From positions 1-44,004 of the forward strand of contig DRKQ01000067.1 in NCBI GenBank assembly GCA_011051685.1: 44,004 nt of DNA, written 5' to 3'. Source of the DNA: Gammaproteobacteria bacterium. GTDB lineage: Bacteria > Pseudomonadota > Gammaproteobacteria > SZUA-152. The position numbers and the translations under genes were made by a program. The notes beneath the pieces were generated by a model that had not been told where the DNA came from, did not search any database, and saw only the letters and a program-made list of their open reading frames with translations. The number at the start of each line of letters is the position of its first letter. The stretch's first letter is position 1. Shown piece by piece: positions 140 to 32,722 of the stretch.

Positions 140-300
140 TCAAAAGGCAAGTTAACGGGACAGCAGTGTTATCGCACATATAAAATGTCAAATACGGTGG
201 GGGCGCCTTTCCAGGTGCGAATCGCGCCTGGAAAGGCGCTCCCAGTCAAGGGAAAAAACCCTGTAGCAATTATTTTGTTTCACTCATTGCCAAAAGACTT
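140..300 (+). repeat. Dispersed intergenic repeat, copy A
   Basis: The core at 198-244 is a long imperfect palindrome (GGCGCCTTTCCAGG facing CCTGGAAAGGCGC). The left flank carries GGGACAGCAGTGTTATCG, and the right flank carries TGTAGCAATTATTTTG. Both the core and the right flank recur near 10030-10123 in the opposite orientation, and the core recurs at the window's right end. It fills most of the gap before the gene at 324. No coding sequence is seen here. Confidence 0.7.
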
Positions 301-1803: not shown

Positions 1804-1834
1804 TTGACCTGGAGTTTACTCCAGGCTGTAGGCT
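1804..1834 (+). promoter_or_regulatory. MerR-type promoter/operator 1
   Basis: The -35 is TTGACC (1804-1809) and the -10-like hexamer is TAGGCT (1829-1834), with a 19-base spacer. That overlong spacer is characteristic of MerR-family activated promoters. The spacer holds the dyad CTGGAGT-TT-ACTCCAG (1809-1824). From memory this core matches the ZntR operator of E. coli zntA. It lies 150 bases upstream of the operon that ends with a MerR gene at 8057. Confidence 0.7.
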
Positions 1835-1906: not shown

Positions 1907-1938
1907 TTGAACCTGGAGTGTACTCCAGTGAGTCAATA
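1907..1938 (+). promoter_or_regulatory. MerR-type promoter/operator 2
   Basis: A second dyad CTGGAGT-GT-ACTCCAG (1913-1928) follows TTGAAC (1907-1912), with a weak -10 candidate TCAATA (1933-1938) at 20 bases spacing, or GTCAAT at 19. The dyad arms are identical to those of operator 1, and the two centres are 104 bases apart. It lies just upstream of the ATG at 1983. Which of the two drives transcription is not clear. Confidence 0.6.
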
Positions 1939-1982: not shown

Positions 1983-2807
1983 ATGAAATTATTGTCTTGG
2001 CCCACTCTGGCAGCCAGCGCACTACTCGCAACGACCAGCGGCAACGTCCTGGCCCATGACCCCGTCTTCGGCATTGGTCCCCACGTCTTATTCAAGGATG
2101 GTATTGAGACAGCGATAGAAGTTGCCCAGGAAAAGGCCGGCGAGGAGAAAGAATCCGAGCTGGCCCTGGAAATTGTTTATGGCATCACCGGCGATTGGGC
2201 GGCTGGTATTGATGTGCCCTATGCCAGAAAAGATGATGGTATGGATACCTCTCGCGGTCTGACCGATTTGCAGGTATTCACTAAGTACCGTTTTTGGCGT
2301 GAAGATTCCCTGGGTCTGCAGGAATCTGCGGCAGTGATGCTGGCTATCAATGGACAAAACGGAGACGAAAATGCCACACCAAAGCTGGGCAATGGAGCCA
2401 CCGATGCCATCCTAGGTCTGACATACGGCTACGAGAGTATCAAATGGTATCGCTGGGCCAGTGCCCGCTATATTTTGCCCGGCAAAAACGATGCCGGTTT
2501 CCAGAAAGGTAATAAATGGCTAGTGGACTTTGTGGCTGGTTGGCGTCCAAAAACACCCGAATATACCAAACCAGACACCGTATGGTTGCTGGAACTTAAT
2601 GGCGAGATTGCCGACAGGGCGGAACTTAACGGTATGTCACTGGCCAACAGCGGAGGCACCGAATGGTTCGTTGCACCCGGCATCTTCTGGACCACTCGTA
2701 ACTTCGCCATCAAGGCCGGTGTGCAACTGCCCATTGCCAGCGAATTGAATGGCACCCAGGACAAGTCTGACTATCGCGCCAAGATGTCCTTTGAGTGGCA
2801 TCTCTGA
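1983..2807 (+). CDS. Outer-membrane channel-like protein (transporter family)
   Basis: This 274-residue protein has a signal peptide ending at about residue 24 (NVLA/HDP). The rest alternates short aromatic/polar strands typical of a beta-barrel and ends in FEWHL. It resembles the 'MetA-pathway of phenol degradation' transporter-like outer membrane family, which is common beside metal-resistance genes. Motifs such as YGITGDWAAGIDVPY and a GLTDLQVFTKYRF strand fit that family. AGGAG precedes the ATG. It is the first gene of the operon behind the two MerR dyads and is a distant relative of the protein at 3196. The substrate is unknown; passage of metal or metal-ligand complexes is an inference. 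Confidence 0.65.
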   Translation: MKLLSWPTLAASALLATTSGNVLAHDPVFGIGPHVLFKDGIETAIEVAQEKAGEEKESELALEIVYGITGDWAAGIDVPYARKDDGMDTSRGLTDLQVFTKYRFWREDSLGLQESAAVMLAINGQNGDENATPKLGNGATDAILGLTYGYESIKWYRWASARYILPGKNDAGFQKGNKWLVDFVAGWRPKTPEYTKPDTVWLLELNGEIADRAELNGMSLANSGGTEWFVAPGIFWTTRNFAIKAGVQLPIASELNGTQDKSDYRAKMSFEWHL

Positions 2808-2853
2808 TTCAAGATTATCCCATTAATTCTTTTTAACAACAGGAGAACCCCAC

Positions 2854-3192
2854 ATGAAAATTACGAACCTCAAAAATATCCTCTTTAAAAGTACACGTCT
2901 GATACTGGCCAGCACACTCACTAGTGCCGCCCTGGTCTGGAGCAGCGCCAGTTTTGCCGGAGGCACTGAATACGACCTGCGTGTGGATGGCCTCGCCTGT
3001 CCCTTCTGTGCCTATGGTATCGAAAAGAAATTCACCAAAACCAAGGGGGTTGAGAGTGTCGAAGTCGATCTCAAGAACGGCCTGGTGATCGTTAAAACCG
3101 ATGAAAGCAAAACGTTTAAGGAAGAAGAACTGAAAACCATCGTACATGATGCCGGCTTCACCATGAAGAGCATGACCGAGAAGGCGCGCTAA
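2854..3192 (+). CDS. Secreted heavy-metal-associated (HMA) domain protein
   Basis: This 112-residue protein has a signal peptide to about residue 35 (ASFA/GG) and a single HMA ferredoxin-like fold. The metal-binding loop is LACPFCAYGIEK with Cys49 and Cys52. The CPFC variant replaces the usual MxCxxC but keeps both thiols. Strand and helix order follows MerP/CopZ, so a periplasmic soft-metal carrier analogous to MerP is likely. A good AGGAG site precedes the ATG. It lies between two channel-like genes and upstream of a MerT-like gene, which matches the MerP-MerT pairing of mercury operons. Confidence 0.8.
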   Translation: MKITNLKNILFKSTRLILASTLTSAALVWSSASFAGGTEYDLRVDGLACPFCAYGIEKKFTKTKGVESVEVDLKNGLVIVKTDESKTFKEEELKTIVHDAGFTMKSMTEKAR

Positions 3193-3195
3193 ATC

Positions 3196-4104
3196 ATGGC
3201 CAGGCGAACTGTAAATTGCTGCTTGGTTGGACTCAGTCCGCTGCTGTTCTTCGCGATAGGCAGTGCTGTGGCAGCACCCATCACTTTCAACACCGCTCTA
3301 CCGGTAGCCAAGGAAGAATTTCTTTTTCGTCAGCAATTCATCAACATGCAATCCGGTGACGATCCAAGTGGTGCACAGCGTGATCGTTCAGAGAATATGA
3401 GCGCCACCACGCTGGCCTATGGCATCAATAACCGCCTGGCCCTATTCGGTGTCTTGCCCTATCGGGACATCGATCTGTCAATGGACATGGGCTCCGGCAA
3501 AGTCAGTCGCAGCAACTCTGGGCTTGGTGATATCAGTGTATTTGCGCGTTACATCTTTCAGCAAAACAACCAGGCAGGACGTACGCTGCGCCTGGCTGCA
3601 TTCGCCGGCCTTAAGGCACCTACCGGTGAAGACGAGGCCAGCGATAGTATCGGCACACTTCCACCCCCGTTGCAACTCGGCAGCGGATCGTGGGATGCGT
3701 TCGGCGGCCTGGTGGTGACGCGGCAAACCCTAGACTACCAGCTTGATGCCCAATTGAGTTACCGCATCAACAATGAAGCCAATCATTTTGAAGCCGGCAA
3801 TGTACTGCGCCTGGATGCCTCATTGCAAAAGCGCATCTGGCCGCGAGAACTGGGTAGCGGTGTCCCGGGATTCGTTTATGCCGTGTTGGAATTGAATGCC
3901 ACCAGTCAGGAAAAAAACGCCCTCAATGGGACAAACGATAACAACTCCGGAGGTACACGCATTCTACTGGCGCCCGGCCTGCAATATGTGACGCGACGCT
4001 GGATCGCCGAGACTGCCGTACAATTTCCCGTGAGTCAAAACCTTAATGGTACAGCGCTGGAGCTGGACACCATTGCTCGCGCCGGGATCCGTTTTAATTT
4101 TTAG
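3196..4104 (+). CDS. Second outer-membrane channel-like protein
   Basis: This 302-residue protein has a signal peptide (about residues 1-27, ending SAVAA) and a predicted beta-barrel that ends in FNF, a terminal aromatic typical of outer membrane proteins. It has the same general pattern as the protein at 1983: a LAYGINNRLALFGVLPY strand, a GLGDISVFARY strand and a late APGLQYVTRRW strand. The ATG is only 3 bases after the HMA gene, so the two are probably translated together. Substrate unknown. Confidence 0.65.
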   Translation: MARRTVNCCLVGLSPLLFFAIGSAVAAPITFNTALPVAKEEFLFRQQFINMQSGDDPSGAQRDRSENMSATTLAYGINNRLALFGVLPYRDIDLSMDMGSGKVSRSNSGLGDISVFARYIFQQNNQAGRTLRLAAFAGLKAPTGEDEASDSIGTLPPPLQLGSGSWDAFGGLVVTRQTLDYQLDAQLSYRINNEANHFEAGNVLRLDASLQKRIWPRELGSGVPGFVYAVLELNATSQEKNALNGTNDNNSGGTRILLAPGLQYVTRRWIAETAVQFPVSQNLNGTALELDTIARAGIRFNF

Positions 4105-4136
4105 GTGTGCTTGCGAAGAGTGTACGAAGGTTTGTG

Positions 4137-4559
4137 ATGAACGATACAACACTGCAAAATACCTTTAACAAGATAACGGGTGACAAGCAAATCGGCATCA
4201 CCTGGCTAAGTCTGTTTGCTTCCAGCGGTACGCTCATCTGCTGTGCACTGCCTATCACCCTGGTGACCTTAGGTATGGGTGCCACTGTGGCTGCACTCAC
4301 CAGCAGTTTTCCGTTCTTGATTACCCTGAGTATGCACAAAATCTGGATATTCTCCGGCTCCGGCGCCATGTTGGCCTTGTCTGGCTGGCTCATGTACCGC
4401 CCCGGCCTCAGTTGCCCCACCGACCCCGAGTTGGGTCGCCTGTGTAACCGAGCGCAGGTTTGGAACCGACGCGTGTACTGGAGTTCAGTGGTCGTTTGGG
4501 GTATTGGCTTTTTTGCCGCCTATCTCGCCTTGCCGCTACGTATCTGGCTGGATGTGTGA
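4137..4559 (+). CDS. MerT-like inner-membrane metal transporter
   Basis: From the ATG at 4137 (AAGG 7 bases upstream, better than the in-frame GTG at 4107) this is 140 residues with three to four membrane segments. The first segment carries adjacent cysteines, LICCALPITLV (Cys35-Cys36), as in MerT. A second cysteine pair (Cys93, Cys103) sits in a polar loop, where MerT also has one. In MerT these pairs hand Hg(II) from MerP to the cytosol. No mercuric reductase is in the window, so the metal here may differ. It overlaps the next gene (ATGA). Confidence 0.75.
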   Translation: MNDTTLQNTFNKITGDKQIGITWLSLFASSGTLICCALPITLVTLGMGATVAALTSSFPFLITLSMHKIWIFSGSGAMLALSGWLMYRPGLSCPTDPELGRLCNRAQVWNRRVYWSSVVVWGIGFFAAYLALPLRIWLDV

Positions 4560-4843
4560 TGGCGATCAAGGTCGAAGTTTTTTCCTCCCCCGGTTGCAGC
4601 AAGTGCAGCCATGCCAAGTCCGTGTTGCAAAAACTGGCCGAAGAGATCGGCGGTGACGCCATTCAATGGCGTGAGGTGAATATCCTCGATGAACTGGATT
4701 ATGCCGTGGCATTGGGTGTGTTATCCACCCCGGCCATCGCAATCGATGGTGAGTTGGTGTTTGGCAGCTTGCCAACGGCAATCAAGTTGCGCACCGAACT
4801 GGAAAGACGGCTGTCACCCATGAGCGGATCATTACGAACATGA
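4559..4843 (+). CDS. Small thioredoxin-fold protein, CSKC
   Basis: This 94-residue, signal-less protein has active-site motif PGCSKC (Cys13, Cys16) after a beta strand and a probable cis-proline in STPAIAIDG. It is the minimal thioredoxin/glutaredoxin-like fold (thioredoxin family, TM0996/MTH895 type) and probably a cytoplasmic thiol-disulfide carrier. Its ATG overlaps the MerT-like stop, and its 3' end overlaps the CcdA-like gene. It is a clear paralogue of the protein at 7780. Inference: it delivers electrons to the CcdA-like protein or to metal-thiol adducts. Confidence 0.75.
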   Translation: MAIKVEVFSSPGCSKCSHAKSVLQKLAEEIGGDAIQWREVNILDELDYAVALGVLSTPAIAIDGELVFGSLPTAIKLRTELERRLSPMSGSLRT

Positions 4844-6153
4844 GTGCCTTATTATTGCTTGGCATGGCGACGCTATTGGGCACCTTGGCCTTTTTTGAGC
4901 CATGCACCATTGCCACGCATACCCTGTTCTCGGCACGCGCCCACCAGCAGCCAAAGACACAATGCTGCCAAAGCCTGCTCACCGTGTGGCTTGCGCGGTG
5001 TGTGTTAATCTGTGTCCTGCTGATAACCGCTGTCCTGCTTACCGAAGCGCCTACGTGGGGGAAATATACTCCCAGTATCATCCTGAGTATTCTGGCCACT
5101 GTTTACATCATTTCACGTTTTATCTATTTGCCCATCCCCCACCTTCACTTCTACCGCTTATTTCCAGGCTTTGATCGATTCCCTCAAGCTGTTCTTCTGG
5201 GGTTGACCTTACCAGCCTGCACCATTCCTCTGGTTATCGTTATTTCCGGTATCGCCATTAGTGTGGATTCTATCGTCTTGGCAGCAGTTTCAGGTCTGTT
5301 GTTCGCCACTCTGTTTACTTTACCCATGTTGTTTGCCTCGCTGCGCGGTATCCATGCCGATGGTGCCGACCTGTTACAACGCACAGCCAAGCTCAGCCCC
5401 TTTATTACCGCCATTCTTTTATACGGCCTTGCCTTGGCGCTAATGCCACCGATGATCGACGTTGACCCTGGCAATCTCAAAAACCTGCTTAGTGAAGCAA
5501 GTTTACTAGGCATTGGCGTGGGCTTTCTTGCCGGACTTGTATTTAGTTTCAATCCTGTATCCTTTGCCTCCATACCAGTAGTGTTGGCCTATGTAACACT
5601 TTCCAATAGTACGCAGCACGAGGAAAAACGCGCCCTCCAGCTGGCTAGTGCATTTGTGGCCGGCATGTTGATCACCCATACACTACTGGGTGGTATTGCC
5701 GCGCTAAGTGGCGATTGGGTGCAAAAGATCATGGGGCATGAATGGGACCTGTTCCTCGGGCCTGTTTTGATACTGCTTGGTCTGATGTGGCCCGGTTGGT
5801 TAAAAATACGCATACCCTGGCTGGCCATGCGTGGAAAAAAGGTCTCCGGTCCTTGGGGCGCATTTCTTCTTGGCATCCCTTTCTCGGTAGCCGTGTGCCC
5901 CTTTTGTACACCGGCCTTACTGGTCACACTCACTGCCAGCGCCGCCATCGGATCGGTTGCCTTCGGCGCCGGGATTTTACTGGCCTTTGCTATTGGACGC
6001 AGCATCCCCATTCTCATTGGCGCCTGGAGCATGGGTTGGTTGGAGTCGTTACGAATGCTTTCTCACCACCAAACGACCGTGGAGATAATCGCCGGACTTT
6101 CCTTGATTATGACGGGACTGTACTTGCTTGGTGAATACTCTTTCGTTCATTAA
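4840..6153 (+). CDS. Tandem CcdA-like (DsbD-type) membrane redox transporter
   Basis: This 437-residue polytopic protein looks like two fused CcdA units of about six membrane helices each. CcdA passes reducing equivalents across the inner membrane through one Cys in helix 1 and one in helix 4. Unit 1 (about 1-215) has both: FFEPC (Cys22) and LPAC (Cys127). Unit 2 (about 216-437) has FNPVSF where the first Cys should be (Val240) but keeps a double CPFC (Cys353, Cys356). The pair-loss suggests the second unit has changed role. It overlaps the upstream thioredoxin-fold gene by 4 bases. Confidence 0.7.
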   Translation: MSALLLLGMATLLGTLAFFEPCTIATHTLFSARAHQQPKTQCCQSLLTVWLARCVLICVLLITAVLLTEAPTWGKYTPSIILSILATVYIISRFIYLPIPHLHFYRLFPGFDRFPQAVLLGLTLPACTIPLVIVISGIAISVDSIVLAAVSGLLFATLFTLPMLFASLRGIHADGADLLQRTAKLSPFITAILLYGLALALMPPMIDVDPGNLKNLLSEASLLGIGVGFLAGLVFSFNPVSFASIPVVLAYVTLSNSTQHEEKRALQLASAFVAGMLITHTLLGGIAALSGDWVQKIMGHEWDLFLGPVLILLGLMWPGWLKIRIPWLAMRGKKVSGPWGAFLLGIPFSVAVCPFCTPALLVTLTASAAIGSVAFGAGILLAFAIGRSIPILIGAWSMGWLESLRMLSHHQTTVEIIAGLSLIMTGLYLLGEYSFVH

Positions 6154-6268
6154 AGTGGAGCTATTGTGAAAATAAACCATGAAAATAAAACATGCAGTTA
6201 TCAACTGTAGCAGTTTATTAAGAGACATAAATCAGAGCAAGTACACATAGCAAGACAAGGAATTGGAA

Positions 6269-6613
6269 ATGAAAAATAAATGGGTAATATGGACAATAAC
6301 CGGACTGGAAGTATTATTTGCACTGTGCGCAGGCAGTGTACTGGTCTACCGTGTTCTCGGTATTGCATTTGATTTTGGCTTATTTTCATACCGGGTGGCC
6401 AACATTGTTATTTCTCTCGTGTTGATTGTTTACATTATCAATGGCCTGTTTAAACGCTCTAAAAATATCCTAATCTGGGTTAGTGCCTTCTCCGCCTTTC
6501 ACCTTATTGAAGGTGTGATTATTGGCTTTTGGTTTAAGGTGGTTATTCACGCACTGATTTTGATTGTTGTTGGTATTTACTATCTACAGCATAAAAACAT
6601 AGAACTTAAATGA
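6269..6613 (+). CDS. Small four-helix membrane protein, unknown
   Basis: From the ATG at 6269 (AAGGA 7 bases upstream; an upstream TTG is less likely) this is 114 residues with about four hydrophobic helices, short charged loops and an ending rich in Lys and Glu. I do not recognise the family. No cysteines lie in a metal pair, and there is one Cys in the first helix. It lies 115 bases after the CcdA-like gene and is more AT-rich than its neighbours. A repeat copy separates it from the NHL gene, so operon continuity here is uncertain. Confidence 0.55.
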   Translation: MKNKWVIWTITGLEVLFALCAGSVLVYRVLGIAFDFGLFSYRVANIVISLVLIVYIINGLFKRSKNILIWVSAFSAFHLIEGVIIGFWFKVVIHALILIVVGIYYLQHKNIELK

Positions 6614-6634
6614 TCATTAACACGGAGCACTATT

Positions 6635-6770
6635 AGTCAGAATCCTGACACTGGTTTAACAGACACCGGTGAGAATTTGCCGCCTTGGAAGGGCGCTCCT
6701 ACACAGAGGAAATAAGCCTGTAGCCTTAATTCTGAGACGTTTAATAAGTATTCCTCTACCACGTTGTAAA
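6635..6770 (+). repeat. Dispersed intergenic repeat, divergent copy D
   Basis: TGGTTTAACAGACACCGG at about 6652 recurs nearly unchanged near 43877. CTTGGAAGGGCGCTCCTACA resembles half of the palindromic core. TGAGACGTTTAATAAGTAT (about 6732) recurs near 10215. It lies between the small membrane protein and the NHL gene. Confidence 0.6.
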
Positions 6771-6811
6771 AAACTAATTTGTAACTATTTTGTCAATTAT
6801 GAGATAAGAAA

Positions 6812-7780
6812 ATGAAATTATTGAAACGTATATTACTGACCCTCGTTACTATTATTGGCCTGTTACTGGTCACTGTTTATGCCGTGTGGATGCCCTCACC
6901 ACAGGAATCCGCCTACACTCTTGTTAAGACTTGGGGAAGCAAGGGAAATGCCCCCGGCCAGTTCAATGAACCTACGGGTATCGCTATTGCCGGCAATGAA
7001 CTCTTTGTCAGCGATGCGCGCAATACCCGCGTTCAAGTATTCGATCTTGATGGGAATTTCAAACACCTCTTTGGTGAAAAGGGCGACGGTCCCGGCCAGT
7101 TTAGCCGCCCGATGAATCTAACTGTCGCCAATGGCGAACTCTATGTCGCAGATTATTTTAATGATCGCATCCAGGTTTACGGGATCGATGGCACATTTAA
7201 ACGCAATATAGGCAAGTCTGGTTCGGAAGGTGGCGAGTTCAGTGCGCCGGGAGGTGTCGCTGTGGCGCCCAATGGCGATGTGTATGTTGCCGATTTTTAT
7301 AACCAGCGTGTCCAGCAATTACACGCCGACGGAAGTTTCGTGCGCCAGTGGGGAAAAACCCGGCAGGTGGGTGTGCTGGATGGCAAGCTGAATTATCCCA
7401 CAGATGTGGCCCTAGCAAAGGACGGAATGCTGTACATTGCAGACGGCTATAATGACCGGGTGTTGGCTATTGGCCCCGATGGTGAGCTGAAGCATAAATG
7501 GGGTGGGCCTTTTGCCATGAACATCTTCGGCCCCTTCAATGGCTGGTTCGCCACCGTCACCGGCATTAGTGTTGGCCCAAGCGGGAACGTCTTTGTTGCC
7601 GACTTCTACAACGACCGGGTACAGAAATTTACCCGGGATGGCCGCTTTCTCAATGCCTTTGGGATCAAGAGCACCGGCCCAACGCACACGGCAATTTCGG
7701 TCGTGGAAGCTGACGACGGCAGTGTTTTCGTGGCAGACTACGCCAATCACCAGATACAGAAGTGGCGCCCCGGACAATAA
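6812..7780 (+). CDS. Membrane-anchored NHL-repeat beta-propeller
   Basis: This 322-residue protein starts with a single hydrophobic segment (about residues 7-27) that could be a signal anchor. Five or six NHL repeats follow, marked by recurring G-x-GQF, VADxxNxRVQxF and PTGIA-type motifs; a six-bladed propeller outside the membrane is expected. NHL propellers often bind ligands or act as scaffolds. The stop overlaps the start of the next gene (TAATG), so it is translationally coupled to the CNKC thioredoxin-fold protein. Its role in metal or thiol chemistry is not known. Confidence 0.8.
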   Translation: MKLLKRILLTLVTIIGLLLVTVYAVWMPSPQESAYTLVKTWGSKGNAPGQFNEPTGIAIAGNELFVSDARNTRVQVFDLDGNFKHLFGEKGDGPGQFSRPMNLTVANGELYVADYFNDRIQVYGIDGTFKRNIGKSGSEGGEFSAPGGVAVAPNGDVYVADFYNQRVQQLHADGSFVRQWGKTRQVGVLDGKLNYPTDVALAKDGMLYIADGYNDRVLAIGPDGELKHKWGGPFAMNIFGPFNGWFATVTGISVGPSGNVFVADFYNDRVQKFTRDGRFLNAFGIKSTGPTHTAISVVEADDGSVFVADYANHQIQKWRPGQ

Positions 7781-8064
7781 TGCCCCAGAACCGACTGAGC
7801 ATCGAAATCTTCTCCGCACCCGGTTGCAATAAGTGCCGCAGGGCCTACCGTCTGGCGCAAGATGTCCTGCAAGAACTAGATAATCATGACATTGCCCTGC
7901 GCCTGGTGAATATTGTCGAGGAACTGGAATATGCGGTGGATCTGGGGATTCGCGCCACGCCCGGTATTGTTTTCAACGGTACGCTGGTGTTTACCGCCAT
8001 GCCCACGGAAGAGGCCCTGCGCAAGGCCATACTGACGCATTTAACGGGGGGCGAGCATGAGTGA
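7780..8064 (+). CDS. Second small thioredoxin-fold protein, CNKC
   Basis: This 94-residue protein is paralogous to the one at 4559, with PGCNKC (Cys16, Cys19), an EELEYAVDLGI helix and ATPGIVFNG containing the likely cis-proline. The chosen ATG overlaps the NHL stop, and its own end overlaps the MerR gene by 8 bases. It has no signal peptide and is probably a cytoplasmic thiol-disulfide carrier. Two copies in one operon suggest either two partner steps, matching the two CcdA units, or two substrates. Confidence 0.75.
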   Translation: MPQNRLSIEIFSAPGCNKCRRAYRLAQDVLQELDNHDIALRLVNIVEELEYAVDLGIRATPGIVFNGTLVFTAMPTEEALRKAILTHLTGGEHE

Positions 8065-8467
8065 GTATCGCATCGGCGACATCGGCAAGCTCCTGGGCCT
8101 GAGTGCAGACACCCTGCGCTATTACGAAAAATTCGGCCTGTTGAAAAACATTGGCCGCACGCCATCGGGAATCCGTGTCTATAGTGACAAGGACATTTCC
8201 ACCCTCAAATTCATTCTGCGCGCGCAAAAGATGAACTTTAGTCTGGCGGAGATCAAGGATCTGTTACAGATGCGCGAAGACCCGCACCATGCCCGCAGCG
8301 AGGTGCGTGAACTGAGTCATCGCAAGCTGGCAGAGATTGAAACCCACCTGCAGGATCTCACCACCCTGCGCAATGAACTCACCCTGCTGGTCAACCTGTG
8401 CACAGGCAGCGAAGACGGCTGCCCGATTATCGAGGGGATCGAGAATAATCCAGCGCAGGAAAAATAA
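8057..8467 (+). CDS. MerR-family metal-responsive regulator
   Basis: This 136-residue protein has an N-terminal winged helix (IGKLLGLSADTLRYYEKFGLL) and a dimerising coiled coil. Its C-terminal metal loop is LCTGSEDGCPII, with Cys115 and Cys122 spaced much as in CueR and the ZntR group. The position matching the metal-selective Ser77/Cys79 appears to be Arg80 in a DPHHARSEV stretch, so selectivity cannot be read from it. Being last in the operon, it probably autoregulates through the dyads at 1804 and 1907. The metal is uncertain. Confidence 0.85.
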   Translation: MSEYRIGDIGKLLGLSADTLRYYEKFGLLKNIGRTPSGIRVYSDKDISTLKFILRAQKMNFSLAEIKDLLQMREDPHHARSEVRELSHRKLAEIETHLQDLTTLRNELTLLVNLCTGSEDGCPIIEGIENNPAQEK

Positions 8468-8500: not shown

Positions 8501-9115
8501 TCAACCCTCGTTCGCCATATTCCGCCTTTCCTGACCGGCATCCTTGATGATGTGCAGGCCGCCGCGCACCACTACCACGGTGATGATCAGGCCGATGATC
8601 AGGTCGGGCCAGCGCGTGTCCAGGGTCAACACCAGCAGGCCGCTGATGATCACTCCCAGATTGGCGATGACATCGTTCTTGGAAAATATCCAGCTGGCCC
8701 GCATATGTACTTCTCCCTCACGATGTTTGTGAATCAACACCAGGCAAATACTGTTGGCCACCAGGGCAATGGCGCCAACAATCAACATGAAACCCGGCTC
8801 CGGCTCACTGCCCAATAGCGCGCGGCGGATAATATCGGCCAGGACGCCGAGGCCCAGCAGAATCTGCAACAGGCCACTGATGTGTGCTGCCCTGGCCTTC
8901 ACGCCCATGGTCTTGCCCACGGCGTACAGGCCTATGGCATAGACCGAGGCGTCCGCCAGCATGTCCAGGGAATCGGCGATCAGCGCCGTGGAATCCGCCA
9001 GCACACCGGCAATGATCTCCGCAATGAACATGGCACCATTGATCAGCAGCAGGATGATCAGCGTCTTTGCCTGTTCCTTATCCGTAATTTCGATCTCGCA
9101 ACCACAATCAGACAT
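8501..9115 (-). CDS. Short CDF-type cation transporter
   Basis: This 204-residue protein starts at 9115 (MSDCGCEIEI), since that ATG overlaps the upstream stop by one base. It has six membrane helices and no long cytoplasmic C-terminal domain, matching the compact 'cation transporter' branch of cation diffusion facilitators. Metal-site residues are IADSLDMLAD in helix 2 and SKNDVIANLG in helix 5. The Cys-rich N-terminus (CGC) may pick up metal. It is coupled to the full-length CDF upstream and converges with the MerR gene. Confidence 0.75.
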   Translation of the reverse strand: MSDCGCEIEITDKEQAKTLIILLLINGAMFIAEIIAGVLADSTALIADSLDMLADASVYAIGLYAVGKTMGVKARAAHISGLLQILLGLGVLADIIRRALLGSEPEPGFMLIVGAIALVANSICLVLIHKHREGEVHMRASWIFSKNDVIANLGVIISGLLVLTLDTRWPDLIIGLIITVVVVRGGLHIIKDAGQERRNMANEG

Positions 9116-9999
9116 CAGGAAACATCCTCGCCACAATGGTTTGTTTCAAATTCCAGGGTTGAATGGCCGATGCCGAACTTCTCGAGTTCGTGCTTGATGG
9201 CCGTCTTGATGGTTTCGGTGTTGGCAAAGTCGTCGATAATCACATGGGCCTCCAGGGCATTCTGGTGTTCATCCAGTTGCCAGATGTGCACATGATGCAC
9301 ATTGCTCACGCCGTCCACAGCCTGCATGGCCCGGATCACCTCTTCCACCGTAAGATTCTCCGGCGTGCCCTGCATCAGGATATGAATGGTCGTTGGCAGC
9401 AGGGTGGCCGCCTGATACAGCACATAACCGGCAATGGCCAGGGTCATCACCGTATCGGTCCAGTACCAGCCATAGAGCAGAATCAGGCTGCCGGCAATGA
9501 CCACGCCTACCGAGGCCAGGGCATCGGAGACATTGTGCAAAAAAGCAGCGCGAATGTTCACGCTATCCTTGGACATGCTATAGGTCAGGGCTGCCGTGCC
9601 CACATCCACCGCCAGAGCCACGGTGGCCACCCAAACCACGGTCCAACCCTCGATTTCCTGAGGCGTGTATAGGCGCCATAGTGCCTCGTACACCAGATAG
9701 ATGCCAATGATCACCAGAGTCACCAGATTGATCAGGGCGGCAATCACCTCTGCCCGCTTGTAGCCGAAGGTCTTGAAGGCATCCGGCGGCTGGCGGCCGA
9801 TCCTGCGAGCCACCCAGGCGATGAGCAGGGAACTGGCATCACTGAAATTGTGCAGGGCATCGGCAATGAGCGACAGGCTGCTGGAGACAATGCCGCCAAT
9901 CACCTGCACCACGGTCAGCAGCATGTTGATGGCAATGGCCACCAGCAAGCGCCGGTCGCCCATGGCCTCAACATCGTGATGTGTATGCTCGTGGCTCAC
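9115..9999 (-). CDS. CDF-family zinc/cadmium/cobalt efflux protein
   Basis: This 294-residue CzcD/ZitB-like exporter moves divalent cations from the cytoplasm in exchange for protons. The His-rich start is SHEHTHHD. Helix 2 carries ADALHNFSDA and helix 5 carries FLHNVSDALASVG, the HxxxD pairs of the zinc site. A cytoplasmic alpha-beta domain with HHVHIWQLDEH follows. I chose the GTG at 9999 because a longer reading to 10134 runs through the palindromic repeat and promoter-like DNA. It lies downstream of the czc RND genes. Confidence 0.85.
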   Translation of the reverse strand: MSHEHTHHDVEAMGDRRLLVAIAINMLLTVVQVIGGIVSSSLSLIADALHNFSDASSLLIAWVARRIGRQPPDAFKTFGYKRAEVIAALINLVTLVIIGIYLVYEALWRLYTPQEIEGWTVVWVATVALAVDVGTAALTYSMSKDSVNIRAAFLHNVSDALASVGVVIAGSLILLYGWYWTDTVMTLAIAGYVLYQAATLLPTTIHILMQGTPENLTVEEVIRAMQAVDGVSNVHHVHIWQLDEHQNALEAHVIIDDFANTETIKTAIKHELEKFGIGHSTLEFETNHCGEDVS

Positions 10000-10014
10000 G
10001 ATTGATTCATCTGA

Positions 10015-10235
10015 AAAAACTTGGACACATATTAACCGTATCAAAATAATTGCTACAGAGCTCATTCCCCCGTGTGGGAGCGCCTTTCCAGGCGCGAATC
10101 GCGCCTGAAAAGGCGCTCCCACAGTATTTGGCATTAAATAAGTGCGCTATGGAATTAGCTTGCCTTCACTCACTGCCCCTTCAGGCATTGCCAAGGTGGC
10201 GAGTTAAACCGATTTTGAGACGCTTAATAAGTATC
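10015..10235 (-). repeat. Dispersed intergenic repeat, copy B (inverted)
   Basis: The core at 10073-10123 is a near-perfect palindrome (GGGAGCGCCTTTCCAGGCGC, spacer, then its complement). Read on the minus strand it shares a flank with copy A (TGTAGCAATTATTTTG). It shares a long stretch with the right-end copy, including GTCTCAAAATCGGTTTAA, CAGTGAGTGAAGGCAAG and CATAGCGCACTTAT. It occupies most of the 353-base gap between the CDF gene and the czcA-like gene. The remainder (10236-10352) includes GTCATCCCGGC, also seen at 25753, and no gene. Confidence 0.75.
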
Positions 10236-10352
10236 AATATCCGTCATCCCGGCAAATTTGAAGCTAATGGAGCAACATCCGCGATAACGATGACAAACAT
10301 GTTATCGCTCGATCATCCCTTGTTGTGTCCTCACGCGCAAGCATGAAAGATT

Positions 10353-13300
10353 TCATGATTCCACTTCTTCATAATGTGCCCGGGAAAAGAAGCCGTACAA
10401 GGCCGGGATGACAAACAACGTCAGCAATGTTGATGACACCAAGCCCCCCACCACTACGGTGGCCAGCGGTCGCTGTACCTCGGATCCCACTCCCGTGGAA
10501 AGCAACATGGGGATCAGCCCCAGGGCTGCGATGGAGGCGGTCATCAACACCGGGCGCAGGCGGGACAGGGCGCCACCGAATACTGCCTCCTCTGGCGCCA
10601 TGCCACTTTCACGACGCTGATTGATGGCGTTGACCATCACCACGCCATTGAGTACCGCCACGCCAAACAGGGCAATAAAGCCAATAGAACCTGGCACCGA
10701 CAGATATTGCCCCGACAAATACAGGGCCGCGATGCCACCAATGAGCGCCAGCGGCACATTGAGCATGATCAACAGCGCCTGGCCCACGGAATTGAAGGCA
10801 AAATAGAGCAATAGGAAAATCAGCCCCAGGGACAGCGGCACCACGATCATCAGCTTGGCCTGAGCGCGTTGCTGATTCTCGAACTGACCGCCAAACACCA
10901 CGGTATATCCGGGGGGCAAGTCCACTTCACTATCGATGCGTTGCTGTAACTCCGCCACCAGGCCACCCATGTCACGACCTTCCACATTGGCCTGGATTAC
11001 CACACGACGCTGCACATCGTCACGCCGGATCTGCGGTGGGCCGGATTCGATGGCCACCTGGGCCACATCGCCCAGTTTTACCCAGGCGCCATTGGGCGCC
11101 TGAAGGATCAGGTTGCGAATCGCCTCCACATTGTTGCGGTGGTTTTTTGCCAGACGCACATAGATGTCGTAACGCTCGTTACCATTGATCACCTGTCCGG
11201 CCTCACGTCCTCCGATGGCATCACTCACCAGGTCCATCACCTGTGCCACGGGGATACCATAGCGTGCCAGTACATCCCTGTCCGGGCGTACGGCCAGCTG
11301 CGCCTCGCCGCCGATCTGCTCCATTCCCACGCCACGGGTACCATCCACCTTGCGCACCAGGGCCTCGATGGCCTTGCCGGATTTGGTCAACTGGGCGAGG
11401 TCGGGGCCAAACAGCTTGATGGCCAGTTGTGCCTTCACACCGGAGAGTAGTTCATCCACACGCGTGGCAATGGGCTGCGAGAATGAGAACAACAATCCGG
11501 GGTGGCGGGACATTTTCTCTTCCATCAATGCCTGTAGGGATTTGCGGTCCTTTGCCGAGGTCCATTCCGAGACCGGCTTCATGCCCACGAAGATTTCCAC
11601 GTTGGATACCGGCTCGGGATCTCCCCCGATCTCGGCGCGCCCCACCCGGCTGGACACATACAGCACCTCGGGAAAAGTCATCAACTGCTGTTCCAGTTTT
11701 TGCGCTACTTCCAACGAGGTATCCAGACTGGCCGAAGGCGCCAGGGTGACACGGATATTCAAGGTGCCCTCCTCCAGTTCAGGCACAAATTCCGTACCCA
11801 GCAGGGGCACCAGCGCCAGGGAACCCACGAACAATGCCAGGGCGGTGCCCACCACCAGACGGCGTGTCTTCAGGGCCGCCTTCAGTAAGCGCCGGTAGAG
11901 CCTGTCCAGCGGCTTCATGACGAAGCTTTCTTTTTCCCGCACGCCGCGCTTGAACAAATAGGTGGCCAACGCAGGCACCACCACCAGGGCCACCAGCAAC
12001 GATGCCAGCATCGCCAGGACGATGGAAATGGCCATGGGCTGAAACAGCTTACCCTCCACGCCCTCTAACGCAAACAAGGGGGCAAAGACGATGATGATGA
12101 TAAACACCGCGAAGAACACCGGTCGTCCCACTTCCCTGGCCGATTCCTGAATGCGCAGCGCGATGCCATGGTCATCACTGGCAGCGTCGTAGGGGTGCTT
12201 GTCGCCGGGCGCCAGTTCCTGTTGGGCATGTTTGTGATGCAATCGGTCCGGTTTACTCAGATGGGTGAAGATGTGTTCCATCATCACCACTGAGCCATCC
12301 ACCATCATGCCGATGGCAATGGTCAGTCCTCCCAGCGACATCAGGTTGGCCGACACGCCCCATTGCGCCATCACCATTAGCGCCAGCAGGATGGAAATGG
12401 GTACCGAGATCAGCACCAGGAAGGTGGCGCGAACATTGAGCAGAAACAACATGAGAATAATCACGATCAACACAAAGGCTTCCAACAGCGCCGTGCTCAC
12501 TGTATTCACCGCTTTGTCCACCAGATCGGATTGATCGTACACCGGCTCGATGGTCACCCCTTCGGGCAAGGCCATTTGAATGGCCGGCAGACGTTCCTTG
12601 ATGCCGTCGATGGTGGCCTTGGTATTGGCACCCATGCGTTTGAGCACCACACCGGCCACGACTTCTCCCAGTGATTCCGGCTTGCCACTGGCATCACGCC
12701 GGGTCATGGTCACCGCACCTTGACGAATCTCCGGGCCAAAGGCCACGGTGGCCACATTGCTGACCCGTACTGGTACGCCATCCACATCCTTCAAGGGAAT
12801 GTTGCCGATATCACGCAGACCATCTTCACCACTGCGCAACCAACCCACGCCACGGATGATCAACTGTTCCTCGCCGCGATCCAGATACCAGCCACCGGCA
12901 TTGCGGTTATTAGCCTCGATGGCCTCGGCCACATCGTCGGATGTCAACTTGTAGGCCAGCAGACGCTGTGGATCCAGTTGTACCTGGTACTGGCGCACTT
13001 CACCACCAAAGGAGAGTACGTCGGTGACGCCGCCCACGGGCATCAACAGCAACTTGACCACCCAGTCATTCAGACTGCGCAGGGCAATGGCGTCATATTT
13101 CGAATGATCCTCAGCCAGCAGGATGTACTGGAACACCTGACCCAGACCGGAGGTATTGGGCCCCATGCCCGGTGTGCCGATGCCTTCGGGAATCTGTTCC
13201 TTGGCTGCCTGCAGGCGCTCAAAAACCAGTTGCCGGGCGAAATAGATGTCCGTGCCCTCCTTGAATACAACGGTGACCACGGACAGACCGGTCTTGGAAA

Positions 13301-13553
13301 TGGAGCGCACTTCTTCCACATCGGGCAAGGCATACATCACCGCCTCGATGGGAAAGGTGATCAACTGTTCCACTTCCTCCGCCGCCAGACCCTGGGCCTC
13401 GGTATTGATTTGCACCTGTACATTGGTGACGTCCGGAAAGGCGTCCAGATTCAGTTTGGGCAGCACCATGGCGCCACCCACCAGGGTGGCCAGCAGTGCC
13501 AGTACCACCAACAGGCGGTTTTCAACCCCAAGGTCGATGAGTTTATTCAACAT
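10353..13553 (-). CDS. CzcA-like heavy-metal RND efflux pump
   Basis: This 1066-residue inner-membrane proton antiporter of the HME-RND family is the pump of a tripartite complex. The N-terminal NLDAFPDVTNVQVQI matches CzcA/CusA. Two periplasmic porter domains alternate with twelve helices. The helix-4 motif is IAIGMMVDGSVVMMEH; the usual ending is VEN, so the final His is a deviation. The motif places it with divalent-type or broad HME pumps rather than CusA. A roughly 35-residue insert (HHKHAQQEL region) follows helix 4. It is last in czcCBA, 15 bases after the adaptor gene. Likely Zn/Cd/Co/Ni export. Confidence 0.9.
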   Translation of the reverse strand: MLNKLIDLGVENRLLVVLALLATLVGGAMVLPKLNLDAFPDVTNVQVQINTEAQGLAAEEVEQLITFPIEAVMYALPDVEEVRSISKTGLSVVTVVFKEGTDIYFARQLVFERLQAAKEQIPEGIGTPGMGPNTSGLGQVFQYILLAEDHSKYDAIALRSLNDWVVKLLLMPVGGVTDVLSFGGEVRQYQVQLDPQRLLAYKLTSDDVAEAIEANNRNAGGWYLDRGEEQLIIRGVGWLRSGEDGLRDIGNIPLKDVDGVPVRVSNVATVAFGPEIRQGAVTMTRRDASGKPESLGEVVAGVVLKRMGANTKATIDGIKERLPAIQMALPEGVTIEPVYDQSDLVDKAVNTVSTALLEAFVLIVIILMLFLLNVRATFLVLISVPISILLALMVMAQWGVSANLMSLGGLTIAIGMMVDGSVVMMEHIFTHLSKPDRLHHKHAQQELAPGDKHPYDAASDDHGIALRIQESAREVGRPVFFAVFIIIIVFAPLFALEGVEGKLFQPMAISIVLAMLASLLVALVVVPALATYLFKRGVREKESFVMKPLDRLYRRLLKAALKTRRLVVGTALALFVGSLALVPLLGTEFVPELEEGTLNIRVTLAPSASLDTSLEVAQKLEQQLMTFPEVLYVSSRVGRAEIGGDPEPVSNVEIFVGMKPVSEWTSAKDRKSLQALMEEKMSRHPGLLFSFSQPIATRVDELLSGVKAQLAIKLFGPDLAQLTKSGKAIEALVRKVDGTRGVGMEQIGGEAQLAVRPDRDVLARYGIPVAQVMDLVSDAIGGREAGQVINGNERYDIYVRLAKNHRNNVEAIRNLILQAPNGAWVKLGDVAQVAIESGPPQIRRDDVQRRVVIQANVEGRDMGGLVAELQQRIDSEVDLPPGYTVVFGGQFENQQRAQAKLMIVVPLSLGLIFLLLYFAFNSVGQALLIMLNVPLALIGGIAALYLSGQYLSVPGSIGFIALFGVAVLNGVVMVNAINQRRESGMAPEEAVFGGALSRLRPVLMTASIAALGLIPMLLSTGVGSEVQRPLATVVVGGLVSSTLLTLFVIPALYGFFSRAHYEEVES

Positions 13554-13567
13554 GGCTCATCTCCCTA

Positions 13568-14860
13568 TTAATGGTTATGTACTTCAAAACCGCTCTTGGC
13601 GATTTCGGATTGCACAAAGAAGGCGCCCTTGCTGACAATGGTGGTGCCTTCATCGATACCCTCGATGAGCAGGCGATTGCCCACAGTCTGCAACACCTCC
13701 ACTTCCCTGGGCTCGAAGCGTCCAGGTGCAACTTCCACAAACAATTGCCAGTCACCATCGGCGGAACGCATCACCGAACCCAGGGGTACTACGATGCCTT
13801 TCTGCTGCTGTTTTCCTTCGATGACCACGGAAACGAATTGGCCGGGATGCAGAAGGTCATCGGGATTCGCCACTTCCACATGCACCGCCAGTGTACGGGT
13901 GGTTTCATCCAGGGTATGACGGGCCTGGGTGACCTTGCCCGAGATCCAGCGTTCGCCCACTTGCACGTGCGCGTCTGCGCCCAGTGCGATGTTGGCAGCA
14001 TCTTCCGGAGTCAGGCGCGCCTCGACCCAGAGAGTGGATTCATCACTGATCTCGAACAACACACGTCCCGGCTCGATGATCTCACCAACGATAAAGTTAT
14101 CACTGATAACAGTGCCCTTTTGTGCCGCCAGCAGGGCAAATCGGCCTGTGGCCTTGCGCGCATCCCCGGTCTTCAACAAGGCATCGATGTGTGCCGGCGT
14201 CATGCCATAGGCACGTACCTTGGCGTAGGCTTGCTGATAGGCAATCTCTGCCGTGATGTAGCGTTTTTCAGACACCACCTTGCGGCCAAGTTTTTTCACC
14301 CGTCGTAATTCCACCGCCGCTCCCAGTAGATCACCCTGTGCCTCGGCCATCTCCACACTCGAAAGTGTGACCAGCACCTGTCCCTTGTTCACGTGATCCC
14401 CAAGTACAACATGGCGCTTGATTACCTGTGCAGGAATACGCGGTGTCACCTTGGTGGTGTGGTATGCATTGAGCACCACCTCGCCCGGTGCCGTGATGGC
14501 TTTGCCCAATATCTGGCGCTTTACCACCATGGTTTCGATGCCAGCCATACGTTGCTGTTCCACGCTCAGTTCAGCATCTGCAGCGGCTTCACCATGGCCA
14601 TGTCCCTCCTCTGCGTGTCCACCATGACCTTCTTCGTTATTATGGCCTGCTTCGTTATTATGGCCTGCTTCGTCGTGGCCATCCTCATCATGATCCTGCG
14701 CTTTCTCATCATGTTCATGAGGGGTGCTCTCGCTGCCTTGACTTTTTGTTTCGTGATCATGGCCTTGTTCTTCGGCAAACACACTGACAGGGCTGCTCAA
14801 ACTCAAACCCAGCAAAAGACAGGCCGCATATTTCAATACGATTGATGATGAATGTTTCAT
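13568..14860 (-). CDS. CzcB-like periplasmic adaptor with His-rich N-terminus
   Basis: This 430-residue membrane fusion protein links the RND pump to the outer-membrane channel. After the signal peptide (ending VFAEE) a roughly 60-residue His/Glu/Asp-rich stretch contains a tandem EAGHNN repeat and HGHGE, a probable divalent-metal sponge. Lipoyl/barrel-sandwich and beta-barrel domains follow (KVTPRIPAQVIKR, VGEIIEPGRVLFEI). The ATG overlaps the CzcC stop. Fits a Zn/Cd/Co adaptor. Confidence 0.9.
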   Translation of the reverse strand: MKHSSSIVLKYAACLLLGLSLSSPVSVFAEEQGHDHETKSQGSESTPHEHDEKAQDHDEDGHDEAGHNNEAGHNNEEGHGGHAEEGHGHGEAAADAELSVEQQRMAGIETMVVKRQILGKAITAPGEVVLNAYHTTKVTPRIPAQVIKRHVVLGDHVNKGQVLVTLSSVEMAEAQGDLLGAAVELRRVKKLGRKVVSEKRYITAEIAYQQAYAKVRAYGMTPAHIDALLKTGDARKATGRFALLAAQKGTVISDNFIVGEIIEPGRVLFEISDESTLWVEARLTPEDAANIALGADAHVQVGERWISGKVTQARHTLDETTRTLAVHVEVANPDDLLHPGQFVSVVIEGKQQQKGIVVPLGSVMRSADGDWQLFVEVAPGRFEPREVEVLQTVGNRLLIEGIDEGTTIVSKGAFFVQSEIAKSGFEVHNH

Positions 14861-16152: not shown

Positions 16153-16222
16153 GATGATAATCCTTCAAAAATAAATACGAGCCGCCTCTCATGAACGTGG
16201 CAGCAAACACGGTTATGAAGGA

Positions 16223-16612
16223 TCAGGCTATGGGGGGACGCAGCAAAGGAGAAATAAACTGGAAAGGAACGGAGAGGTTATGAACAGACAGGAAATCCTG
16301 TGTAATGCCGACCTTTTTCAGCGGCACATTATAGAAAATGCCTACTAGGTGGGCCGAACCATGACTGCAGTGATCGTCCTGATGTCCGCCACTATTGGAA
16401 GGGCTATCGGAAGGACTATTGGCGTGACCATGCAGTTGGCCGTAATGATTGGCATGGTCTTCAGTATCGCCATGCAGCGCAGTCGCTGCGAGATTGATCA
16501 TCGTTGTTGCGTGGTCGAATTCACCTCCGAGTTCTGGATGTTTATCCCAGGCAAATGCCGATCCCGAACAGAGGTTGGCGAACAACAACAGAAATGTAAT
16601 GATTTTTTTCAT
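16223..16612 (-). CDS. CzcI-like small secreted protein
   Basis: This 129-residue protein (ATG at 16612, not the TTG further up) has a signal peptide ending SAFA/WDK. The middle is rich in His and Asp (HYGQLHGHANS, HQDDHCSHGSAH) with one Cys. The C-terminus is hydrophobic and ends PLLRPPIA. Small secreted proteins of this sort, such as CzcI, precede czcCBA in other bacteria and are thought to modulate it. Its terminal RPP resembles two other small secreted proteins in this window. Confidence 0.65.
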   Translation of the reverse strand: MKKIITFLLLFANLCSGSAFAWDKHPELGGEFDHATTMINLAATALHGDTEDHANHYGQLHGHANSPSDSPSNSGGHQDDHCSHGSAHLVGIFYNVPLKKVGITQDFLSVHNLSVPFQFISPLLRPPIA

Positions 16613-16709
16613 CAATGCCAATTCTCGTGGAAGTGTGGCCTTGCGTCAACCACCCATTCTCCCTGATATCGGCCCTTTGGCCACAAATCTTGATAATTTC
16701 CTCAAAAAA

Positions 16710-17045: not shown

Positions 17046-17072
17046 AACCTTCCCCTTATATGTATTCTGTAT

Positions 17073-32677: not shown

Positions 32678-32722
32678 TGTTATTCCCACATTTGGTTATT
32701 ATTAAGTGCCGATTATCAGGCA

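What the first reader, a model, noticed from the sequence alone, without database searches (positions are those of the whole stretch)
1983..8467. Operon joining a MerT-like importer, two thioredoxin-fold proteins and a doubled CcdA
Ten rightward genes combine outer-membrane channels, a MerP-like carrier, a MerT-like transporter, two CxxC thioredoxin-fold proteins, a tandem CcdA-like protein, an NHL propeller and a terminal MerR. Several overlap by a few bases. No reductase such as MerA is visible, so electron transfer through thiols across the inner membrane may substitute for it. I know of no named system with this composition. A repeat copy and a gap between 6154 and 6811 could split it into two transcripts.
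Basis: partly seen in the sequence, partly recalled or inferred. Interest (0 to 1): 0.85.

Follow-up and report, generated by a model that had tools for sequence, protein, structure and literature searches.

The report
MerR-controlled soft-metal thiol operon
This is a conserved but apparently undescribed set of bacterial genes, switched on by its own metal sensor, that probably moves a sulfur-loving metal such as mercury, copper or silver between pairs of sulfur atoms on carrier and membrane proteins, often beside ordinary metal-resistance genes.

Summary
In detail: ten rightward genes at 1983-8467 encode two PF13557 outer-membrane proteins, an HMA (MerP-like) protein, a MerT-like protein below Pfam cut-off, two CxxC thioredoxin-fold proteins, a CcdA-related membrane protein (Ccd2), an orphan membrane protein, an NHL propeller and MerR. 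It is not a one-off: 131 loci encode Ccd2. In the 80 kept, Trx lies directly upstream of ccd2 in 74 of 74 scorable loci and MerR downstream in 52 of 65. An operator CTGGAGT-NN-ACTCCAG lies upstream in 59 of 67 scorable loci (control 1 of 67). The sensor keeps two loop cysteines (60 of 60) but mostly has Arg/Lys where CueR has Ser77 (55 of 60). Ccd2 genomes are enriched for MerA (19 of 24 against 54 of 345), so replacement of MerA is not supported. 'Doubled CcdA' is only half supported: the C half is CcdA-like but lacks both canonical CcdA cysteines and carries an invariant CPFC; the N half is not demonstrably CcdA. Best reading: a two-thiol soft-metal module with Trx1-Ccd2 as core. Whether Ccd2 exports the ion (ArsG-like) or electrons (DsbD-like) is open; no ligand is shown.

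The parts
1804..1834 (+). MerR-type promoter: -35 TTGACC (1804-1809), 19-bp spacer overlapping operator CTGGAGTTTACTCCAG (1809-1824), -10 TAGGCT (1829-1834)
   Evidence: Exact operator match, mean 0.12 expected in shuffles at up to 2 mismatches. Same architecture at 67 sites in 59 of 67 loci; E. coli zntA carries the same operator core. A 19-20 bp spacer is typical of MerR promoters (passages of PMC9909328).
1913..1928 (+). Second operator CTGGAGTGTACTCCAG, 104 bp after the first, without a recognisable -10 in the promoter position
   Evidence: Exact match. 15 of 67 loci have a promoter-type site followed 59-97 bp later by a site of this second type, 12 of them at 59-67 bp.
1983..2807 (+). omp1, outer-membrane protein, PF13557
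   Evidence: 31.6 bits (cut-off 22); found in 20 of 80 loci and in L124.
2854..3192 (+). MerP-like HMA protein with N-terminal signal-like stretch and CPFC
   Evidence: PF00403 48.8 bits; CxxC in 47 of 47 aligned MerP-like rows, window included.
3196..4104 (+). omp2, outer-membrane protein, PF13557
   Evidence: 46.4 bits; found in relatives.
4137..4559 (+). MerT-like inner-membrane protein, CC in first helix and a Cys pair in the loop
   Evidence: PF02411 17.8 bits, below the 32.9 cut-off; the four cysteines align with those of two canonical MerT and are kept in 34-35 of 35 rows.
4559..4843 (+). Trx1, small thioredoxin-fold protein without evident signal peptide, CSKC and cis-Pro motif (STPAI)
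   Evidence: PF13192 43.1 bits; a Trx gene directly precedes ccd2 in 74 of 74 scorable loci.
4840..6153 (+). Ccd2, 437-aa membrane protein: N half with conserved EPC/PAC, C half CcdA-related with invariant CPFC
   Evidence: PF02683 61.2 bits in C half; PDB 5vkv E 8e-6; Cys conservation in 78 proteins, window included; models.
6263..6613 (+). Orphan 116-aa membrane protein between ccd2 and nhl; probably not part of the conserved system
   Evidence: No Pfam or NCBIfam match; no tblastn match at E up to 0.01 in the 94 relative loci searched, L023-L110 without L001-L022 and L123-L128.
6812..7780 (+). NHL propeller with N-terminal membrane-anchor-like stretch
   Evidence: PF01436 129 bits; in 5 of 80 loci and in L024, L025, L124, L128.
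7780..8064 (+). Trx2, second small CxxC (CNKC) thioredoxin-fold protein
   Evidence: PF13192 40.1 bits; a second Trx lies next to merR in L025, L027, L028 and, as a partial match, L029.
8057..8467 (+). MerR-family sensor, loop C-x6-C, Arg at the CueR Ser77 position
   Evidence: PF09278/PF13411; no NCBIfam equivalog reaches its cut-off; loop and position-77 survey of 60 homologues.

Best explanation
A soft-metal (two-coordinate, thiophilic cation: Hg(II)/organomercury, Cu(I), Ag(I) or Au(I)) handling operon. (1) The MerR protein senses the ion with two loop cysteines and activates the long-spacer promoter in front of omp1 [promoter and conserved residues shown; ligand inferred]. (2) Omp1/Omp2, the MerP-like and the MerT-like protein form an outer-membrane/periplasm/inner-membrane arm that passes the ion from thiol pair to thiol pair, as MerP-MerT do, optionally to MerA encoded elsewhere [cysteine pairs shown; transport inferred]. 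(3) The core, cytosolic Trx1 plus membrane Ccd2, takes the thiol-bound ion from cytosolic thiols (Trx1 CxxC) and moves it out through Ccd2, whose C half has lost the CcdA redox cysteines and instead carries an invariant intramembrane CPFC [residues shown; export inferred by analogy with ArsE/ArsG]. NHL and Trx2 are accessory.
For: Conserved unit. Own regulon: operator in 59 of 67 loci, control 1 of 67, 0 sites in 271,003 downstream bases; of 13 distinct sites (up to 1 mismatch) in six genomes, 10 lie at copies of this operon, 2 on contig C244, probably the front of the C82 copy, and 1 elsewhere. Sensor: two loop Cys 60 of 60, Arg/Lys at position 77 in 55 of 60; a review gives that residue as the main determinant of +1/+2 selectivity (passages of PMC9909328). 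Metal context: MerA in 19 of 24 ccd2 genomes against 54 of 345 (p 1e-10), still so within CzcA-positive genomes (19 of 24 against 43 of 189, p 9e-8); clustered neighbours in the 80 loci include RND pumps in 17, MerA in 14, canonical MerT in 10, CDF in 9 (RND named by eye). Core self-sufficient: 20 of 59 loci with over 3 kb upstream show no merT-like or HMA-protein hit at all. C half: V240 (76 of 78) stands at the first CcdA Cys and F355 (77 of 78) at the second, C353 and C356 are 78 of 78. The ArsG model is the top NCBIfam match of the window protein and is matched by 31 of 31 homologues, though below cut-off for the window protein.
Against: No ligand or phenotype evidence. ArsG score is 57.9 against a cut-off of 200. 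The N half keeps PC at a helix break (C22 77 of 78) and C127 (78 of 78), which could be a working redox pair, favouring an electron relay. Importing by MerT-like and exporting by Ccd2 in one operon would be futile unless the arms act on different species. Enrichment with CzcA-type RND (24 of 24 against 189 of 345) shows that these are metal-rich genomes in general, and no correction for phylogeny was made. The single-CcdA relatives sit beside copper genes and arsenite-oxidase-like genes as well as mer. A CcdA pair with DsbA and DsrE on Arthrobacter plasmids was ascribed to sulfur metabolism (passages of PMC6305408).
Confidence: 0.4

Rival explanations
1. Electron relay: cytosolic Trx1 reduces Ccd2, which sends electrons to the periplasm to keep the MerP-like CxxC, MerT-like cysteines or an NHL partner reduced (DsbD/CcdA-like). 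No ion passes through Ccd2.
For: C half matches DsbD_TM and CcdA 5vkv by sequence; the whole model matches 5vkv (prob 1.00, TM 0.55 by target, E 0.056; matched range not shown); N half keeps C22 and C127; Trx partner adjacent in 74 of 74; MerP-like CxxC proteins in 34 of 59 loci with over 3 kb upstream (anywhere in the locus).
Against: Both canonical CcdA cysteine positions of the C half are V and F; 20 of 59 loci show no HMA or merT-like hit as acceptor. My queries would not have found an unrelated periplasmic Trx, so its absence is not claimed.
Confidence: 0.3
2. Hg(II) is reduced by thiols through Trx/Ccd2 in place of MerA.
For: No MerA seen in the window ORF lists (which lists 150 aa and more); 5 of 24 ccd2 genomes lack MerA over cut-off.
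Against: MerA is enriched, not depleted, with ccd2; MerA lies near the core in several loci; two MerA in this genome.
Confidence: 0.05
3. Thiol system for sulfur metabolism or cytochrome c maturation (SoxVW/CcsX-like) recruited into a metal island.
For: Several hosts carry names that I know as sulfur oxidisers (Thiogranum, Thiobacillus, Sedimenticola; record titles); a two-CcdA, DsbA, DsrE cluster on Arthrobacter plasmids was ascribed to sulfur compounds (passages of PMC6305408); DsrE-like genes lie near some copies.
Against: MerR-type regulator and operator of its own; MerT/MerP-like partners with all cysteines; metal-resistance neighbours.
Confidence: 0.08
4. Patchwork: independent cassettes (OMP-MerPT-like; Trx-Ccd2-MerR; NHL-Trx2) in a metal island, no joint mechanism.
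For: Only 29 of 59 loci with over 3 kb upstream have a merT-like gene; nhl is in 5 of 80 loci; in L026 the arms are on opposite strands.
Against: The same operator fronts both arms: two sites between the divergent arms in L026, one before trx1 in C82; nearly full sets recur in L025/L031 (one locus) and L124.
Confidence: 0.15

Closest known systems
mer operon (MerR-MerT-MerP-MerA)
   Same: MerP-like HMA CxxC, MerT-like CC plus loop Cys pair, MerR-family control; canonical MerT over 60 bits or MerA over 300 bits in 17 of 80 loci.
   Different: MerT-like below the PF02411 cut-off; no merA in the unit; sensor mostly lacks the third Cys of Hg-MerR; adds OMPs, Trx, Ccd2, NHL. In the passages I saw of a survey of mer operons (PMC3466566; 272 by its table) no CcdA or Trx gene is tabulated.
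ArsE-ArsF-ArsG (Chen, Zhang and Rosen 2019; only its citation and one sentence seen in PMC9144182; the rest recalled)
   Same: Small CxxC Trx-like proteins of the MTH895/ArsE type and a CcdA-fold permease; ArsG is the top NCBIfam model for window Ccd2.
   Different: Below both cut-offs (ArsG 57.9 of 200; ArsE-type 37.3 of 62); extra N half; MerT/MerP/OMP partners; MerR-type operator.
CcdA/DsbD membrane electron transporters
   Same: C-half family (5vkv, PF02683).
   Different: Both canonical cysteine positions replaced in the C half; CPFC instead; extra N half.
MerR-Trx-CcdA cassettes on plasmids of Cupriavidus, Paraburkholderia, Nitrobacter, Afipia, Variovorax (annotated, unnamed)
   Same: MerR, Trx, CcdA; NPV and CPxC in the two aligned; in Nitrobacter and Afipia MerT and a MerP-like protein follow; mer operon next door in Cupriavidus and Paraburkholderia.
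   Different: Single CcdA of about 230 aa without the N half; regulator has Cys at position 77 and a longer loop in the three checked.
Actinobacterial 'mercury transporter' TrxA and CcdA proteins (Table 4 of PMC12195606, passages)
   Same: Trx-like and CcdA-like proteins named in a Hg-resistance context.
   Different: Sequences not compared here.

Membership tests
mer operon | merA in the unit | tested here: not met
   No merA in the window ORF lists; two MerA over cut-off elsewhere in the genome.
MerT (PF02411) | Score over curated cut-off | tested here: not met
   17.8 against 32.9 bits.
MerT (PF02411) | CC in first helix and Cys pair in cytoplasmic loop (motif plan recalled) | tested here: met
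   34-35 of 35 rows; aligned with two canonical MerT from these genomes.
Hg-MerR | Third ligand Cys from the other protomer (Cys82 of Tn501, PMC9909328) | tested here: not met
   Arg in window; R 40, K 15, C 5 of 60 homologues.
CueR/ZntR/CadR equivalogs | NCBIfam equivalog cut-off | tested here: not met
   Best is PRK09514 117.5 of 143.
ZntR-type operator | CTGGAGT-NN-ACTCCAG in a 19-20 bp spacer | tested here: met
   Window; E. coli zntA carries the same core.
ArsG (NF040495) | Curated cut-off 200 bits | tested here: not met
   57.9 bits for the window protein.
ArsG (NF040495) | Efflux of aromatic arsenicals | not testable with these tools
   Needs an assay.
CcdA/DsbD | Sequence family | tested here: met
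   C half only: PF02683 61.2 bits of 27.1; 5vkv E 8e-6.
CcdA/DsbD | Redox cysteines in helices 1 and 4 | tested here: not met
   C half V240 and F355 by alignment to 5vkv. N half has C22 and C127, but its CcdA membership is unproven.
Tandem CcdA | Both halves homologous | tested here: inconclusive
   hhalign N versus C half prob 16, E 0.0016 over 85 columns; N-half fold match to 5vkv prob 0.25.

The most novel reading that the evidence does not exclude
A further kind of soft-metal detoxification besides reduction (MerA) and P-type/RND efflux: an ion carried on a cytosolic CxxC thioredoxin-fold chaperone into a two-part CcdA-derived membrane protein with a CPFC site, commanded by a MerR subclass with Arg/Lys in place of the third ligand and by a two-operator promoter, and joinable to a MerP/MerT/OMP arm.
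Probability: 0.25. Interest if true: 0.8.

Novelty: new variant of a known kind. Interest (0 to 1): 0.6.

Why it matters
It would define an unnamed, widespread metal-response module (131 loci in one scan), give many 'CcdA', 'thioredoxin family' and 'MerR' annotations a function outside cytochrome maturation, and offer a sensor with an unusual ligand set for the +1/+2 selectivity question in MerR proteins. The operator makes the regulon directly testable with a reporter.

Tried and rejected
Replacement of MerA: rejected on co-occurrence. Tandem CcdA as a firm statement: withdrawn after the N-half model. I first took N238 as the replaced CcdA cysteine; the alignment to 5vkv places V240 there. 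An ars link: Acr3 shows no association across genomes (9 of 24 against 122 of 345, p 0.83), although ars genes lie in 8 of 80 loci. Selenoprotein and arsEFG paper searches brought nothing on this composition. Not done: correction for relatedness, a search for MerC/MerF/MerE as other Hg importers, the metagenome and viral collections.

Limits of the counts. Set aside before counting: 6 of 80 with too little upstream sequence for the Trx count, 15 of 80 for the MerR count, 13 of 80 for the operator count; 3 of 80 gave no near-full-length Ccd2 and 3 no Trx row, and 20 of 80 no MerR for the alignments. MERA tblastn hits over 60 bits may include other disulfide reductases; one search uses 300 bits. 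The MerA search scored only the best 4 candidates per genome.
Full report
What is in the window. Ten + strand genes fill 1983-8467. Their families are given in the observation check and parts. The MerT-like protein fails the MerT cut-off but keeps the MerT cysteine plan: CC in the first helix and a pair in the loop, aligned with two canonical MerT proteins and kept in 34-35 of 35 rows. The MerP-like proteins keep CxxC in 47 of 47 rows. Trx1 and its homologues have C[GST]KC in 76 of 78 rows; the other two (L065, L095) lack their N-terminus.

It is a conserved unit. In the 57 genomes, full-length Ccd2 at 60% identity or more occurs in 6 (own included), with two copies in G019; the own genome also has a frame-broken copy on contig C82. 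tblastn maps show the same partners around these copies. The genome-contig scan found 131 loci encoding a relative, of which the best 80 were kept, mostly gammaproteobacterial MAGs by record title. Trx lies directly upstream of ccd2 in 74 of 74 loci with over 400 bp upstream; MerR lies downstream in 52 of 65 with over 1500 bp downstream; a merT-like gene is in 29 of 59 and a MerP-like gene in 34 of 59 loci with over 3 kb upstream, counted anywhere in the locus. In 20 of these 59 no merT-like or HMA hit was found at all. A single-contig genome of another family carries two operators, omp1, merP-like, merT-like, merP-like, omp2, nhl, an HMA protein, trx1, ccd2 and merR in a row (L124), nearly the window's set. 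So trx1-ccd2, usually with merR, is the core and the rest an optional arm. The orphan ORF 6263-6613 has no counterpart in the loci searched.

It has its own regulon. Two exact copies of CTGGAGT-NN-ACTCCAG lie at 1809 and 1913. The first sits between TTGACC and TAGGCT, 19 bp apart. In six genomes with the operon, 13 distinct sites with up to 1 mismatch were found. Ten lie at a copy of it and two on contig C244, which ends inside an omp1 gene and probably is the front of the C82 copy (contigs not joined); one (G024 C14) does not. In 67 loci with at least 1.2 kb upstream, 59 have a site with up to 2 mismatches within 6 kb upstream of ccd2, against 1 of 67 for the complement-only control, and none in 271,003 bases downstream. 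At 67 promoter-type sites the -35 reads TTGAC (61) or TTGAT (6) with one exception at the second base, and the -10 has T in 63, A in 67 and final T in 66 of 67. A second type of site lacking the -10 follows the promoter-type site in 15 loci, at 59-67 bp in 12 of them; two more loci have the reverse order and two have two promoter-type sites. The E. coli zntA promoter has the same operator core, so DNA recognition looks ZntR-like while the ligand site does not.

The sensor. In 60 MerR proteins from the loci both loop cysteines are invariant, the loop is C-x6-C in 54, and the position of CueR Ser77 holds Arg in 40, Lys in 15 and Cys in 5 (the five are L055, L070, L083, L090, L108). In E. coli ZntR the alignment places Cys79 in an insertion next to that column, so for ZntR the equivalence is not clean; the Hg-MerR and plasmid regulators do have Cys in it. 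A review gives this residue as the main determinant of +1/+2 selectivity and shows the same loop spacing in CadR, Cys112-Cys119 (passages of PMC9909328). A two-Cys sensor without a third thiol points to a two-coordinate ion; this is inference.

Ccd2. The C half is CcdA-like by Pfam and by PDB sequence (5vkv, E 8e-6). The whole model (pLDDT 78.5, pTM 0.52) matches 5vkv with prob 1.00 and TM 0.55 by target, but only at E 0.056 and rank 7, behind MFS-type transporters with TM 0.19-0.25; no match reached E 0.001 and the matched range was not shown. The alignment to 5vkv puts V240 and F355 on the two canonical cysteines, while C353 and C356 (CPFC) are 78 of 78. Two plasmid single-CcdA relatives show the same NPV and CPxC. 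The N half carries C22 (77 of 78) and C127 (78 of 78) at predicted helix breaks, but neither hhalign (prob 16) nor Foldseek proves it to be CcdA. ArsG is the top NCBIfam model of the window protein, 57.9 of 200 bits, and is matched by 31 of 31 homologues (per-homologue ranks not shown).

Metal context. In the same 369 genomes of the class, ccd2 (E up to 1e-60; 19 full length, 5 truncated or single-domain) occurs in 24, MerA over cut-off in 73. Overlap 19 of 24 against 54 of 345 (p 1e-10); for the full-length ones 15 of 19. Acr3 shows none (9 of 24 against 122 of 345). CzcA-type RND shows 24 of 24 against 189 of 345. Within RND-positive genomes MerA still stands out, 19 of 24 against 43 of 189. 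G102 and G260 have MerA but no PF02411 match; G102 has the merT-like gene, so the MerT-like arm might feed MerA there. Canonical mer hits (over 60 bits) lie in 19 of 80 loci, 14 of 31 with over 5 kb on both sides; with MerA over 300 or MerT over 60 bits, 17 of 80. Clustering of all neighbours in the 80 loci gave an RND pump in 17 (named by eye), MerA in 14, canonical MerT in 10, CDF in 9, Acr3 in 7. On plasmids the single-CcdA cassette lies beside merRTPA in Cupriavidus and Paraburkholderia, with MerT and a MerP-like protein in Nitrobacter and Afipia, and beside CueR and copper ATPases in Variovorax.

How it most likely works. I commit to a soft-metal thiol module with Trx1-Ccd2 as the moving part and the MerP/MerT/OMP arm as an add-on. 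Export through Ccd2 is slightly preferred to an electron relay, because the core often occurs without a recognised MerP-like acceptor (20 of 59 loci; for example L123) and the C half has lost both CcdA cysteines. Export, ligand and direction are all inferred.

What is known. Paper searches for MerT/CcdA/thioredoxin/MerR combinations showed no description of this composition in their listings or in the passages I read; the library holds open-licence papers only and listings were capped, so this is not proof of absence. Precedents are the plasmid cassettes, ArsEFG (recalled beyond one sentence and a citation in PMC9144182), 'mercury transporter' TrxA/CcdA entries in actinobacteria (PMC12195606, passages), and a CcdA/DsbA/DsrE cluster ascribed to sulfur metabolism in Arthrobacter (PMC6305408, passages). 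Of PMC8261052 I saw passages from its reference list only.

Noticed in passing
window 197-244 and 10074-10121: 48-nt repeat with inverted arms (GGGCGCCTTTCCAGG...CCTGGAAAGGCGC), 94% identical, flanking the operon and the two CDF genes.
   Followed up: no
L024 (G000:C82) 4513-6255: Sister copy of trx1-ccd2-merR in the same genome, with ccd2 split over several frames, beside merA-merP-merT and ars genes.
   Followed up: partly
window 1913-1928 and e.g. L060, L069, L107: Second operator of another flank type (GAACCTGGAGT..ACTCCAGG.TGTCA), in most tandem cases about six helical turns after the promoter operator; unusual for MerR systems as far as I recall.
   Followed up: partly
L031, L037, L044, L067 and others: An MBL-fold protein lies in 12 of 80 ccd2 loci, often just after ccd2; the window copy has none there.
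   Followed up: no
L121 and L122, Variovorax plasmids: MerR-Trx-CcdA followed by a GDCCVxC (seleno)protein next to CueR and copper ATPases.
   Followed up: no
window 8501-23063: Two CDF genes and two RND efflux sets on the minus strand directly after the operon, read from ORF translations; one search confirms the RND pump at 17088-20249.
   Followed up: no
window 29993-32689: P-type ATPase with three N-terminal YHS-like repeats (FCS..C motifs) and two CPM-type repeats, read from the ORF translation.
   Followed up: no
window 39126-40346: Protein with two thioredoxin-like halves (CPYC and CPNC motifs), read from the ORF translation.
   Followed up: no
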